A stretch of DNA of 64,000 bases from Bacteroides sp. (GTDB lineage: Bacteria; Bacteroidota; Bacteroidia; Bacteroidales; SM23-62), in the NCBI GenBank assembly GCA_011053095.1, contig DRHS01000191.1, positions 1-64,000 of the forward strand. Direction: 5' to 3'. Position numbers and translations under genes: made by a program. Under the pieces are notes generated by a model. That model was not told where the DNA came from, did not search any database, and was given only the letters and a program-made list of their open reading frames with translations. Shown in pieces: positions 35,192-39,830 of this stretch (position 1 is its first letter; every line of letters starts with the position of its first letter).

Positions 35192-37522
35192 TCAAATCCT
35201 GGAAAATGAATAGGTCTGGCCAGCTTCTGTGGATTGCTCGCGGGTATTATCCCCATATCTGATTTTCAGGTCATTCCCCAGTTTTGACAGCACTTTAAGT
35301 TGGGTCAGTTCACCGTCTTTCCAGGAAATATCCACCTCAAATCCTCCCCTTGCACACAATCCCTTTACATCGCCCTCCGCCCATGCTTCCGGGAGGGCAG
35401 GAAGAATGCTTAGTTCGTTCATGTGTGACTGGAGAAGCATCTCAGCAATCCCTGCTGTTCCCCCGAAATTTCCGTCAATCTGGAAAGGGGGATGGTTGTC
35501 AAACATATTCGGATGGGTTGATTTGGCAAACAATTGCTGTATGTGATGAAGTGCCTCTTCCCCATCCTGAAGGCGGGCAAAGAAATTGATCATCCAGGCA
35601 CGGCTCCATCCTGTATGTCCCCCTCCATGCTCCAGACGGTCTTCAATAACCTTTGCTGCAGCCTCCATATACTCGGGTGTTTCGTTCCAGTTGTATTGGT
35701 TTGATGGGTAAAGTCCATACAGATGGGACATATGACGGTGCCCCGGGTTAAGTTCCCGTAAACCCTCCTCCGACCATTCCAGTATCCGGCCATCCTCTCC
35801 AATATTTACCGGGGCAAGTTGTTCAAGCTGGGACTGGAGTATGGCCCTAAATCCATTATCCCTGTCAAGCACTTCACTGGCAGCAATCACCGATGTAAAC
35901 AAATGCCAGACGATCTGAAGATCCATCGCAGGTCCCATACAGGTTGCTGCTGTGTCACCCGAAGTAGCGACGAACATATTCTCGGGTGATATGGAGGGAC
36001 CCGTCACCAGTTTGCCTGTTTCAGGATGTTCTGTCAGGTAATCCGATAGGAATAGAGCAGCATCACGCATTACAAAGTATCCATCGTCTTCCAAAAATTC
36101 AATGTCTTCAGTAAATAAATAATGCTCCCAGATATGAGTTGAGGCCCATGCAGCACCCATGGGCCAGAGTCCCCATTTAGGAGACCCAAAGGGAGTCGTG
36201 AAGTACCCCAGGTCTGTTGTATGATGCGCTGTAAAGCCGCGGCAGCCATAAGTTTCCATTGCCGTCCTTCTTCCGTTCTCCCTTAATCTCCCAATAAAAT
36301 CAAGCATGGGCAGATGGCATTCCGACAGGTTTGTTACCTCGGCCGGCCAGTAGTTCATCTGGATATTGATGTTGATATGATAATCCGCGTTCCAGGGTGG
36401 TATTAGATGTTCATTCCAGATGCCCTGAAGATTTGCCGGCAGGTTACCGGGACGGGAACTGGAAATAAGCAAATACCGTCCAAATTGAAAATACAAGGCA
36501 GCCAGTTCAGGATCTATATGATTGACGGCCGATTCCAATCTCTCATTCGAAGGCAGATCATAAAAAGAAGCCGTTCCCGGCTCAGAGTTACCGAGTCGAA
36601 TTGAAACCCTGTTAAAATATCCCTGGTATTCCACGATATGATCTGCAAGGATTTGTTCATAAGACCTTTCTTTTGCTTTCATTTCATCTTTCTCACAAAG
36701 TTCAGCCGGATCTTCTCCTGAAAAATTGGTCCCCGCTACAAGCCTCAGTTCCAACTTATCTGCATTTACTATCACCAGTCCATCATCTTCCACATTAATT
36801 GTTCCGCCTGTATTTATAACCTCCAGCCTGGTTTCGTATCTTACTCCCTGGCCATTCTCCACATGCTGTTTCATTATTATTCCATTCTCATGGATGATTA
36901 CTTCTTCGCCTTCACCCGGACGGGTTAACGAGATCTTGCAGCTTATTGCAGCATCCCTGCTTGCTGTCTCCAGGAATAGAATCATATTATCTACCGCAGA
37001 AGAAAAAACCTGCCGCTTGTATATTGTTCCCTTTTTCTGGTATTGTATATGAACCAGGGCGCTGTCTAAATTGAGCGTTCGCTTGTAATTAGTGTACTTG
37101 CCGGGATCAGCATACTGAATTTTCAAGTCGCCAAGTGTTTGATATGACCTGGTTCCCGAGGGCAATCTTTCGTCCAGCAGCTCCTGCCTGGCAAGTAATT
37201 CTCCCTTTTTGTACTCGCCTGCAAATAATAATTCCCTGATCCTGTCCAGCGATTCTGCTCCGGGTTTATTTTTGTATTCATCCTTAAAACACCAGACCGA
37301 TTCTTCATTCAACTGCAGCCTTTCCTCGTCAACCCCTCCGAAAACCATAGCTCCCAGTCTTCCATTACCAACCGGTAAAGCCTGATTCCAATCAGTCGCG
37401 GGTTCATCAAACCAGAGATAATTGGCAGTAAAGTTGGCATCCTCTCCTGGCCCGGAGCATGACACAAGAATAATCCCGGTTAATCCGATCAATAATGAAA
37501 TTGTAAATTTTGCTGATCTCAT
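35192..37522 (-). CDS. glycoside hydrolase family 95 (alpha-L-fucosidase-like)
   Basis: LWFDEPATDWNQALPVGNGRLGAMVFGGVDEERLQLNEESVW; WNADYHININIQMNYWPAE; lipoprotein signal; start at internal Met 37522. Confidence 0.92.
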   Translation of the reverse strand: MRSAKFTISLLIGLTGIILVSCSGPGEDANFTANYLWFDEPATDWNQALPVGNGRLGAMVFGGVDEERLQLNEESVWCFKDEYKNKPGAESLDRIRELLFAGEYKKGELLARQELLDERLPSGTRSYQTLGDLKIQYADPGKYTNYKRTLNLDSALVHIQYQKKGTIYKRQVFSSAVDNMILFLETASRDAAISCKISLTRPGEGEEVIIHENGIIMKQHVENGQGVRYETRLEVINTGGTINVEDDGLVIVNADKLELRLVAGTNFSGEDPAELCEKDEMKAKERSYEQILADHIVEYQGYFNRVSIRLGNSEPGTASFYDLPSNERLESAVNHIDPELAALYFQFGRYLLISSSRPGNLPANLQGIWNEHLIPPWNADYHININIQMNYWPAEVTNLSECHLPMLDFIGRLRENGRRTAMETYGCRGFTAHHTTDLGYFTTPFGSPKWGLWPMGAAWASTHIWEHYLFTEDIEFLEDDGYFVMRDAALFLSDYLTEHPETGKLVTGPSISPENMFVATSGDTAATCMGPAMDLQIVWHLFTSVIAASEVLDRDNGFRAILQSQLEQLAPVNIGEDGRILEWSEEGLRELNPGHRHMSHLYGLYPSNQYNWNETPEYMEAAAKVIEDRLEHGGGHTGWSRAWMINFFARLQDGEEALHHIQQLFAKSTHPNMFDNHPPFQIDGNFGGTAGIAEMLLQSHMNELSILPALPEAWAEGDVKGLCARGGFEVDISWKDGELTQLKVLSKLGNDLKIRYGDNTREQSTEAGQTYSFSRI

Positions 37523-37547: not shown

Positions 37548-38144
37548 TTATGATCTGGCAAATGCTATAAGAGATTTCATTTCCATTTGCTCTGCATTGT
37601 GAATATTATCAATATATTTCTTTCTTGATTCACCGGGTTTTACAAGATCCAATCCTCCCCATGTAAATACATCTTCATTAAACACATTTGATATTAGTAT
37701 ATCCGCACATAATCTTGAATGTCTTCCGTTTCCATTTGGGAAAGGATGGATCTTCACAAGCCTGAATTTGAATCGTATTGCAATCTCATCATGGGAATAG
37801 GTCTCATTGTCAATCCAGTATCTGCAATCATCCAACAGAGTTATTAAGCTTGTCGATATTTGCAATTTATCAATCCCTATATTTTTATTTGTATTCCTGA
37901 ATTTACCTGCCCATTCCCAGGTTTTATTAAACATCCTTTTATGAACCTCCATAATGAATTCAATTGTAAGAATCCGGTCCAGACTGAATTTTTTACTTAT
38001 TGTCCACTCAAAAGCAGATTCAATATTATGTTGTTCAAACTCATCCAGTTCTTTCCTGGTGGAGATGGTTTTTATTAAAATTCCGTCTTTTTCCTCTTCA
38101 GAAATTGGTGTTTGACCATAGATATATTCAAGATCTAGTCCCAC
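37548..38144 (-). CDS. mobile mystery protein B (Fic/DOC domain)
   Basis: Fic core HPFPNGNGRHSR; MGLDLEYIYGQTPISEEEKDGI N-terminus; overlaps the A gene. Confidence 0.9.
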   Translation of the reverse strand: MGLDLEYIYGQTPISEEEKDGILIKTISTRKELDEFEQHNIESAFEWTISKKFSLDRILTIEFIMEVHKRMFNKTWEWAGKFRNTNKNIGIDKLQISTSLITLLDDCRYWIDNETYSHDEIAIRFKFRLVKIHPFPNGNGRHSRLCADILISNVFNEDVFTWGGLDLVKPGESRKKYIDNIHNAEQMEMKSLIAFARS

Positions 38145-38593
38145 AAATACTTCGGGATTTTAGCTGATAATTCTTCCTTTTTCTCCTTTACTGCCTGTTT
38201 AAGTCTAACATCCGAAGGCTTTTGATTTTCCAGGCTCATGGTTAGAGACGTTCGTTTTACAATTTCGGCTGCTAATTCTTCAGCTCTTTGTTCAATCATT
38301 TTCTGTAGCGAAAGCTGTTTTGGTATGAAACCGTATACAAATTTCATGTCAAGAGCCCTCGCAACATGCCGTAATACATTTAATGACACAGTACCACTTT
38401 TCTCGCGCTCCTCAGTTTGTTTTAAACCCTGAGGGGTAATATTCATCCTGCTGCTGAGTTGCCTCCGGGACATATTTATTGCTTTCCTGATTGAAAAAAT
38501 CCATCCTTCAGGTGGGATAACAAGATCATTCAAATTTTGGAATTCCCTGATTTTCCTATCCAGCTGATCAACTATTAGTTTTCGCTCTTTCAT
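38135..38593 (-). CDS. mobile mystery protein A (XRE-type HTH)
   Basis: IPPEGWIFSIRKAINMSRRQLSSRMNITPQGLKQTEEREKSGTVSLNVLRHVARALDMKFVYGFIP. Confidence 0.9.
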   Translation of the reverse strand: MKERKLIVDQLDRKIREFQNLNDLVIPPEGWIFSIRKAINMSRRQLSSRMNITPQGLKQTEEREKSGTVSLNVLRHVARALDMKFVYGFIPKQLSLQKMIEQRAEELAAEIVKRTSLTMSLENQKPSDVRLKQAVKEKKEELSAKIPKYLWD

Positions 38594-38601
38594 AAACCTA
38601 T

Positions 38602-38664
38602 AGCTTTATATTCAAATACCAAATATAAAGCTTTAACCTTTATTTTGCAAATAAATTATAAAGC
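38602..38664 (-). promoter_or_regulatory. Promoter with overlapping operator for the A/B (HTH/Fic) pair
   Basis: Minus-strand -33 TTTG (38648-38651), 20-nt spacer, -7 TATATTTG (38620-38627); perfect 11-bp inverted repeat AGCTTTATATT/AATATAAAGCT (38602-38632); third TATAAAGC at 38657-38664. Confidence 0.65.
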
Positions 38665-38708: not shown

Positions 38709-39830
38709 CTACAATCTTCCGTCGTAATCATTGCCTTGTTCCGGTTTCAGGGGCCATTTAACCGGCGTGTTGTCTCGGGTGGACCTGTATATTGCTGTAA
38801 AGATCTCTACGGTAACTCTCCCCTCTTCTCCGGTAATGAGAGGTTTCCGGCCTTCAAGAATGGCCAGCAGGAAATCTTCTATGTTACGCTCATGGAAATA
38901 ATCGAGTGGTTTTTCAAGTGAATTGAAAAAATCTGAATCTTCCTGATTCCAGTTTTCGATCATTTTTTCTTCACCTGGAACGGACCAAACGTCAAGAACA
39001 GGAGGAGCAAGGATTATTGACATCCCGGCTACAAACATAGCACCGGCATCCGTCTGTACCCCTACGGATGCCCCGCTCTTCCCGTGAACGTGGACCTTTC
39101 CGTAGATACCGGGTTTCTGTGCATTTGAAACTATGATATTACCGATGCCCCCGTTCTTGAATTTGATAATAGCATTCGCGGTATCATCAACTTCAATATA
39201 AGGATGATTGATATTTGACCAGTGCCCGTACAACTCATCGATCTCCCCCATATACCATTGAAGAAGGTCAATCTGGTGAGGAGCCTGGTTCACAAGTACT
39301 CCTCCTCCCTCATCAGCCCAGGTTCCCCGCCAGGGATCACTGTCATAGTATTCCTTGTTCCTCCAGCCAAGCATATTAACCGTACCGAAAGCAGGTGTTC
39401 CGATTTTTCCTGCATCAATGGCTTCTTTGACCCGCATTACAGGCCTGAACCATCTGCGCTGGTATATCATCCCAATCTGCCTGCCTGTATTCCGGGAGAC
39501 TTCGAGCATAGCATCGCAGTCCTCCAATGAAGACGCGAGTGGCTTTTCGATCAGGACATGGGCGCCGGCTTTTAGAGCAGCGATTGTAGGTTCCTTATGA
39601 TTTGGATGCGGAGTTAGTATGATAACAACGTCGATTTTTTCCTTTGTTACCATTTCAGTAACATCGGTGTATGCATTTACTCCGTATTTTAAGGCATACT
39701 CCTTTGCCTTTTGCATGTTTCGGCTGCATACGGCAGTGAATTGCGATTCTTTCAGATTTACAAGGGCAGCTGTATGCATGTCGGTTATCTTCCCGATACC
39801 AACAACAGCAGTTTTAAGTTTTTCGCTCAT
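38709..39830 (-). CDS. Gfo/Idh/MocA family oxidoreductase
   Basis: KTAVVGIGKITDMHTAAL..., VVIILTPHPNHKEPTIAALKAGAHVLIEKPLA. Confidence 0.95.
   Translation of the reverse strand: MSEKLKTAVVGIGKITDMHTAALVNLKESQFTAVCSRNMQKAKEYALKYGVNAYTDVTEMVTKEKIDVVIILTPHPNHKEPTIAALKAGAHVLIEKPLASSLEDCDAMLEVSRNTGRQIGMIYQRRWFRPVMRVKEAIDAGKIGTPAFGTVNMLGWRNKEYYDSDPWRGTWADEGGGVLVNQAPHQIDLLQWYMGEIDELYGHWSNINHPYIEVDDTANAIIKFKNGGIGNIIVSNAQKPGIYGKVHVHGKSGASVGVQTDAGAMFVAGMSIILAPPVLDVWSVPGEEKMIENWNQEDSDFFNSLEKPLDYFHERNIEDFLLAILEGRKPLITGEEGRVTVEIFTAIYRSTRDNTPVKWPLKPEQGNDYDGRL

What the first reader, a model, noticed from the sequence alone, without database searches (positions are those of the whole stretch)
37548..38593. 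HTH + Fic 'mobile mystery' pair with a candidate inhibitory motif in the HTH partner
The B protein has an apparently complete Fic core (HPFPNGNGRHSR). Its overlapping upstream partner A, an XRE HTH protein, has TMSLEN near its C-terminus, fitting the (S/T)xxxE(G/N) inhibitory motif of Fic antitoxins. This suggests one protein both represses the operon and blocks the Fic active site, a toxin-antitoxin-like design for a family named for unknown function.
Basis: partly seen in the sequence, partly recalled or inferred. Interest (0 to 1): 0.62.

Follow-up and report, generated by a model that had tools for sequence, protein, structure and literature searches.

The report
Fic enzyme with DNA-binding antitoxin partner
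Two overlapping bacterial genes form a mobile pair that looks like a toxin and its brake: the partner protein appears both to bind its own promoter and to carry, in its most conserved stretch, the glutamate that known Fic inhibitors push into the enzyme's active site, although the enzyme itself lacks a usual metal-binding residue.

Summary
A (38135-38593, -) and B (37548-38144, -) are TIGR02612 and TIGR02613 above curated cut-offs. A has exactly one [ST]xxxE[GN] match, TMSLEN (residues 118-123). It is not a chance match: among 68 A proteins with a B next door only six positions are invariant, and four of them are M119, L121, E122 and Q124 (signature MxLExQ). All 22 viral-contig loci fetched with B alone also carry it. 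B never occurred without A (35 of 35 in 396 Bacteroidota genomes), whereas 7 of 40 A lacked a full B. A perfect 11-bp palindrome overlaps a Bacteroidota-type promoter upstream of A. Two corrections. First, the Fic core is not complete: N137 replaces the Mg-binding D/E, family-wide (74 of 76). Second, the strict canonical motif is met by only 11 of 76 pairs; Glu is constant and the -4 and +1 positions vary. Two AlphaFold models of natural A-stop-B readthrough fusions did not settle docking (pTM 0.53 and 0.68). Best reading: an autoregulated, class-I-Fic-like toxin-antitoxin pair whose antitoxin is an XRE repressor with an inhibitory C-terminal segment. One congener keeps a deletion scar of B at the same site. 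Toxicity, docking and chemistry remain untested.

The parts
38135..38593 (-). gene A: XRE/Cro-type HTH protein, mobile mystery protein A (152 aa), predicted repressor-antitoxin
   Evidence: TIGR02612 140.4 bits, above cut-off; HTH_26 at 7e-4, below Pfam cut-off
38342..38494 (-). HTH region of A (residues 34-84)
   Evidence: HTH_3/HTH_26 matches to residues 34-84
38222..38242 (-). inhibitory-type segment TMSLENQ of A (residues 118-124); signature MxLExQ
   Evidence: M119, L121, E122 and Q124 invariant in 68 paired A proteins; 22 of 22 viral loci
37548..38144 (-). gene B: Fic-domain protein, mobile mystery protein B (198 aa), GTG start, predicted toxin
   Evidence: TIGR02613 226.1 bits; Pfam Fic 7.7e-11; fold match of a B homologue to VbhT, TM 0.68
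37713..37748 (-). Fic motif HPFPNGNGRHSR (B residues 133-144); N137 in place of D/E, R144 = the Arg that pairs with the inhibitory Glu in class I complexes
   Evidence: H133, G138, N139, R141 and R144 invariant in 60 B; N137 in 58 of 60, 74 of 76 pairs with viral loci
38135..38144 (-). 10-nt overlap of A end (..LWD stop) and B start, consistent with translational coupling
   Evidence: sequence; B lies in the same relative frame in 57 of 74 pairs
38602..38632 (.). candidate operator: perfect 11-bp inverted repeat AGCTTTATATT-9-AATATAAAGCT
   Evidence: 13 of 2000 dinucleotide-preserving shuffles reach 11 bp
38620..38651 (-). candidate promoter of the Bacteroidota type, TTTG-N20-TATATTTG, its -7 box inside the palindrome
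   Evidence: sequence match; consensus from general knowledge

Best explanation
A and B form a mobile, autoregulated toxin-antitoxin-like operon. B is a Fic-fold enzyme without an inhibitory helix of its own. A is a two-part protein. Its N-terminal XRE helix-turn-helix binds the palindrome over the promoter and represses the operon. Its C-terminal half carries a class-I-type inhibitory segment, TMSLENQ, whose Glu122 is predicted to pair with the last arginine (R144) of B's Fic motif and hold the nucleotide phosphates out of a productive position. Loss or degradation of A would release B and derepress the operon. Shown here: gene identity, overlap, invariance of the MxLExQ segment and of the Fic residues it would touch, absence of an inhibitory motif in B, B never seen without A, palindrome over the promoter, mobility. 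Inferred: docking, repression, toxicity, and the chemistry of B.
For: MxLExQ is the most conserved element of A, more conserved than the HTH. It is intact in every A that has a B: 68 of 68, plus 22 of 22 viral loci selected by B alone. All 35 B above cut-off in 396 Bacteroidota genomes sit next to an A, while 7 of 40 A above cut-off lack a full B. Fic H133, R141 and R144 are invariant. B has no [ST]xxxE[GN]. B homologue models match the class I toxins VbhT (TM 0.68, 3.5 A), EcFicT (0.69) and Fic-1 (0.66). In EcFicTA and Fic-1-AntF the antitoxin Glu salt-bridges the last Fic Arg (PMC5033356; PMC13327609), and the S/T position is dispensable for inhibition (AntF S24A still inhibits), which fits its variation here. 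Covariation between A108-126 and B24-52, the helix region that known FicA antitoxins bind, ranks in the top 0.8% of same-size blocks (the block was partly chosen). Operator and promoter. Mobility: 236 plasmid records with A and 231 with B, viral contigs, congeners without the cassette and one with a B scar. A Mesorhizobium mobile mystery B gene is among the 50 most heat-induced genes (M 4.02; PMC3989490).
Against: N137 replaces the Mg-coordinating acid; in Fic-1, E139A abolished AMPylation and toxicity (PMC13327609). Only 11 of 76 pairs meet the strict motif. AlphaFold fusions gave pTM 0.53 and 0.68, with pLDDT about 65 around the motif. In orphan A proteins whose signature is eroded (L027, L033, L038, L069) the Glu itself persists while M, L and/or Q change, and seven orphans keep the full signature, so loss of B does not quickly free the Glu. 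Upstream inverted repeats are only moderately enriched across the family (29% of loci at p<=0.05). No sequence relation between A's C-terminal half and FicA antitoxins was found.
Confidence: 0.62

Rival explanations
1. The A-B complex is an obligate two-subunit enzyme rather than a toxin and its brake: A's Glu122 works as catalytic residue in the Fic pocket (deAMPylation or another nucleotide hydrolysis), and B alone is inactive because the metal-binding acid is missing.
For: B's acid is Asn in 74 of 76 pairs while H133 and A's E122 are invariant in all 76. In Fic-1-AntF, E139A loses AMPylation but the complex still deAMPylates, and AntF E28 and Fic-1 H135 are essential for that (PMC13327609). 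B is never without A.
Against: R141 and R144 are also invariant, and the authors of the Fic-1 study assign the matching arginines to AMPylation. No partner AMPylase is encoded in the cassette. A mobile cassette and B decay at the site fit a toxin as well.
Confidence: 0.13
2. MxLExQ is conserved for A's own fold, dimerisation or DNA binding, or it binds B at a surface away from the active site (as reported for E. faecalis Phd-Doc, where neutralisation works by toxin dimerisation).
For: Glu is retained in four orphan A proteins with an eroded signature and the full signature in seven orphans. Docking was not resolved by modelling. Precedent: PMC13034048.
Against: The signature is lost only in proteins without B (0 of 68 paired versus 7 of 14 unpaired, Fisher 9e-7, but only about three independent events, and three of the seven are distant HTH proteins with another C-terminal domain). 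The match to the class I consensus lies at a helix end, next to a Fic partner that lacks its own inhibitory motif.
Confidence: 0.17
3. The pair is a regulatory switch without toxicity: B modifies A (or is sensed by A) to tune transcription of the operon or neighbours.
For: A is an HTH protein; the operon carries its own promoter and palindrome; M. loti B is heat-induced.
Against: Scattered, mobile distribution on plasmids, viral contigs and one cassette site with congener losses suits a selfish or defence module better. B never occurs without A.
Confidence: 0.08

Closest known systems
[quoted passage not shown]
   Same: Both proteins score above the curated cut-offs; same gene order and adjacency.
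   Different: Nothing; the window is an ordinary member. The family is named for unknown function, and no paper found here assigns it a mechanism; one survey lists TIGR02613 under Fic/Doc toxin-antitoxin cargo of Tn7-like elements (PMC8649781).
Class I FicTA modules (VbhTA, EcFicTA, Fic-1-AntF)
   Same: Fic enzyme preceded by a small partner that supplies the [S/T]xxxE[G/N]-like Glu; closest class I folds by Foldseek (TM 0.66-0.69).
   Different: Partner is a 152-aa XRE repressor, not a short helical FicA; -4 and +1 positions vary; adds an invariant MxLExQ; Fic motif has N for D/E.
Phd-Doc
   Same: Fic-fold toxin neutralised by an antitoxin that is also the operon repressor.
   Different: Phd has another DNA-binding fold. 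Doc has an HxFxxANKR-type motif and phosphorylates EF-Tu (Doc motif from general knowledge), and in E. faecalis neutralisation does not occlude the motif (PMC13034048).
HTH-fused Fic proteins (CbFic2)
   Same: HTH and Fic linked functionally; the inhibitory Glu and the HTH both affect activity (PMC10628234).
   Different: CbFic2 is one chain with a C-terminal winged HTH and its own inhibitory Glu (E66); here two proteins.
PADLOC candidate PDC-S04
   Same: B matches the profile (4.4e-20).
   Different: Candidate defence models of Fic-like proteins; no defence function tested here.

Membership tests
TIGR02612/TIGR02613 mobile mystery pair | A above 122.6 bits and B above 124.4 bits, adjacent | tested here: met
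   140.4 and 226.1 bits; overlap of 10 nt
Class I Fic (FicTA) | Fic fold | tested here: met
   Pfam Fic; homologue model TM 0.68 to VbhT
Class I Fic (FicTA) | canonical HxFx[D/E]GNGRxxR | tested here: not met
   N137 in place of D/E; 74 of 76 pairs
Class I Fic (FicTA) | no inhibitory motif inside the Fic protein | tested here: met
   no [ST]xxxE[GN] anywhere in B
Class I Fic (FicTA) | [S/T]xxxE[G/N] in the separate partner | tested here: inconclusive
   met in the window (TMSLEN); family: Glu 76/76, S/T at -4 53/76, strict motif 11/76
Class I Fic (FicTA) | inhibitory Glu salt-bridges the last Fic Arg | tested here: inconclusive
   pTM 0.53 and 0.68, no coordinates, no docked match
Class I Fic (FicTA) | AMPylation of a target, growth inhibition without antitoxin | not testable with these tools
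   needs expression and assay
Type II toxin-antitoxin module | two-gene operon, antitoxin first | tested here: met
Type II toxin-antitoxin module | toxin not found without antitoxin | tested here: met
   35 of 35 B with A in 396 genomes
Type II toxin-antitoxin module | antitoxin represses its own operon | tested here: inconclusive
   palindrome over promoter, p about 0.0065; 29% of homologous loci significant
Type II toxin-antitoxin module | toxicity cured by direct binding | not testable with these tools
   needs experiment
Phd-Doc | Phd-type antitoxin fold and Doc-type motif | tested here: not met
   A is XRE HTH, TIGR02612; B is TIGR02613 with HPFPNGNGRHSR

The most novel reading that the evidence does not exclude
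Mobile mystery A-B is a natural Fic pair that has lost the AMPylation-specific acid but kept the residues needed for removal of AMP (B His133 plus A Glu122), so that the repressor-antitoxin A is a catalytic subunit and the A-B complex acts as a mobile deAMPylase or a related nucleotide-processing enzyme under A's own transcriptional control.
Probability: 0.12. Interest if true: 0.75.

Novelty: new variant of a known kind. Interest (0 to 1): 0.5.

Why it matters
The mobile mystery pair is present in about 10% of sampled Bacteroidota genomes, about 4% of the sampled genomes of the phylum of the Rickettsiales-titled genome, and in 231 plasmid records, yet no mechanism has been assigned to it in the papers found. 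An invariant Glu-bearing segment in the HTH partner turns the question into a one-residue test (A E122G) and would add a repressor-type antitoxin to the class I Fic world, where the structurally studied antitoxins are short helical proteins. The family-wide Asn in the Fic motif asks whether such a Fic enzyme AMPylates at all.

Tried and rejected
Chance match of TMSLEN: 9% by composition, rejected because of invariance across the family. Intramolecular (class II/III) inhibition in B: no motif. AlphaFold docking: fusions read through the natural stop between in-frame A and B (L039; truncated L155) gave pTM 0.53 and 0.68; Foldseek found the Fic part (VbhT TM about 0.68), but matches that span A's helix and FICD have 13-25 A rmsd and mean nothing for docking. 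Earlier alignments (A1, A4) misplaced A segments on B and were not used. A's C-terminal profile against PDB sequences: best hits are unrelated (Mo25, E 0.04). Phage records: no B match. Window B alone found nothing in viral contigs; a B alignment did. 'Fresh insertion' of the cassette at this site: rejected as the only reading, since G800 keeps a B deletion scar. Signature loss in orphans as clean proof: rejected, Glu persists in four of them and few events are independent.

Full report
What is there. On the minus strand A (38135-38593, 152 aa) is followed, with a 10-nt overlap, by B (37548-38144, 198 aa, GTG start). A is TIGR02612 (140.4 bits, cut-off 122.6) and B is TIGR02613 (226.1 bits, cut-off 124.4); Pfam sees Fic in B and only a sub-threshold HTH in A. 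There is one copy of each in the genome; the other Fic proteins in it are weaker matches, far below the cut-off.

The motif. It gets it. Homologues were collected by sequence patterns, by profile in Bacteroidota and in the phylum of genome G396, and through B only in viral contigs. In 68 A proteins with a B next door only E64, Y87, M119, L121, E122 and Q124 are invariant. The 22 viral loci in which the region upstream of B is held all have an A with MxLExQ. In 76 non-redundant pairs Glu is 76/76; the -4 position is T 28, S 25, N 21, Q 1, H 1; the +1 position is D 33, N 16, A 11 and others; the strict published motif is met by 11. A looser -4 position is tolerable: AntF S24A still inhibits Fic-1, while AntF E28G does not (PMC13327609).

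The enzyme. B's motif is HPFPNGNGRHSR. H133, F135, G138, N139, G140, R141 and R144 are invariant or nearly so, but the fifth residue is Asn in 58 of 60 B and 74 of 76 pairs, where AMPylating Fic proteins have D/E that binds the metal (PMC5033356). In Fic-1 the matching E139A lost AMPylation and toxicity but not deAMPylation in complex with AntF. So the core is not complete in the usual sense, and the chemistry of B is open. B has no inhibitory motif of its own.

Genetics. In the same 396 Bacteroidota genomes 40 had A above cut-off and 35 had B; every B was next to an A, and 7 A lacked a full B. Among A proteins without B the signature is intact in seven, eroded in four (L027, L033, L038, L069, in which the Glu itself remains while M, L and/or Q change) and absent in three distant HTH proteins with another C-terminal domain. 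L030 keeps only the first 25 or so residues of B, running into a GNAT-like frame. The asymmetry fits a toxin that cannot be kept without its antitoxin, and also fits an obligate two-subunit enzyme.

Regulation. Upstream of A lies a perfect 11-bp palindrome, AGCTTTATATT-9-AATATAAAGCT (38602-38632), reached in 13 of 2000 shuffles, and a Bacteroidota-type promoter, TTTG-N20-TATATTTG (38620-38651, -), whose -7 box is inside it. Across 76 loci, 29% have an upstream inverted repeat at p<=0.05. This supports, but does not show, autorepression.

Mobility. The pair sits between a Gfo/Idh gene (38709-39830) and a GH95 gene (35192-37522), all on the same strand. In three congeners these two genes are adjacent without the pair. 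One of them, G800, has between them a short frame, GQYALSEHEREGLKIEILPVEFARL-stop, that matches the B N-terminus (0 of 200 shuffles as good) and ends like the B C-terminus. So the pair was once at this site in that lineage and was deleted; the empty sites are not proof of fresh insertion here. Elsewhere the pair is on 231-236 plasmid records, for example beside a recombinase on a Vibrio plasmid, and on viral contigs.

Structure. In several loci A and B are in one frame with a single stop between them, so reading the stop as Gln gives natural single-chain fusions. AlphaFold gave confident HTH and Fic parts but pTM 0.53 (L039, full length) and 0.68 (L155 without the HTH), with pLDDT about 65 around the motif. 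Foldseek puts the Fic part close to class I toxins (VbhT TM 0.68, EcFicT 0.69, Fic-1 0.66) and does not show a docked helix. Paired mutual information (76 pairs, about 42 effective) places A108-126 x B24-52 in the top 0.8% of blocks. That B region covers the helix that FicA antitoxins bind (PMC8401265, PMC13327609), but the block was partly chosen after seeing the top pairs, and phylogenetic noise is high.

Verdict. Strict membership in canonical class I FicTA fails on the Fic motif, so I say it works like a class I FicTA module with a repressor-type antitoxin. Phd-Doc already shows a repressor that neutralises a Fic-fold toxin, so this is a new variant, not a new kind.

Noticed in passing
L014:702-1517 (+) (same protein in L073): Mobile mystery A fused in frame to a nucleotidyltransferase (MNT-like, Pfam NTP_transf_2 2.4e-11) where B would be, with MxLExQ intact; the partner seems swapped.
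   Followed up: partly
L093:1162-1791 (-), L094:1453-2064 (+), L096:1171-1827 (-): Mobile-mystery-A-type HTH (91-96 bits, below cut-off) followed by a different C-terminal domain: nucleotidyltransferase-like in L093 and L094 with weak HalB/MntA matches, nothing recognised by Pfam in L096.
   Followed up: partly
L030:3420-3920 (+): Remnant of B (about 25 N-terminal residues) running into a GNAT-like acetyltransferase frame behind an intact A, in an Arenibacter genome.
   Followed up: no
L129, between the Gfo/Idh and GH95 genes (genome G800): 35-codon scar of a deleted B gene at the window's cassette site in a congener.
   Followed up: yes
L011 and L031: Identical A and B proteins in MAGs titled Margulisbacteria and Delongbacteria: recent transfer or mis-binning.
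   Followed up: no
PMC3989490, Mesorhizobium loti mll2066: A mobile mystery B gene is among the 50 most heat-shock-induced genes (M 4.02); the neighbouring A gene was not examined.
   Followed up: no
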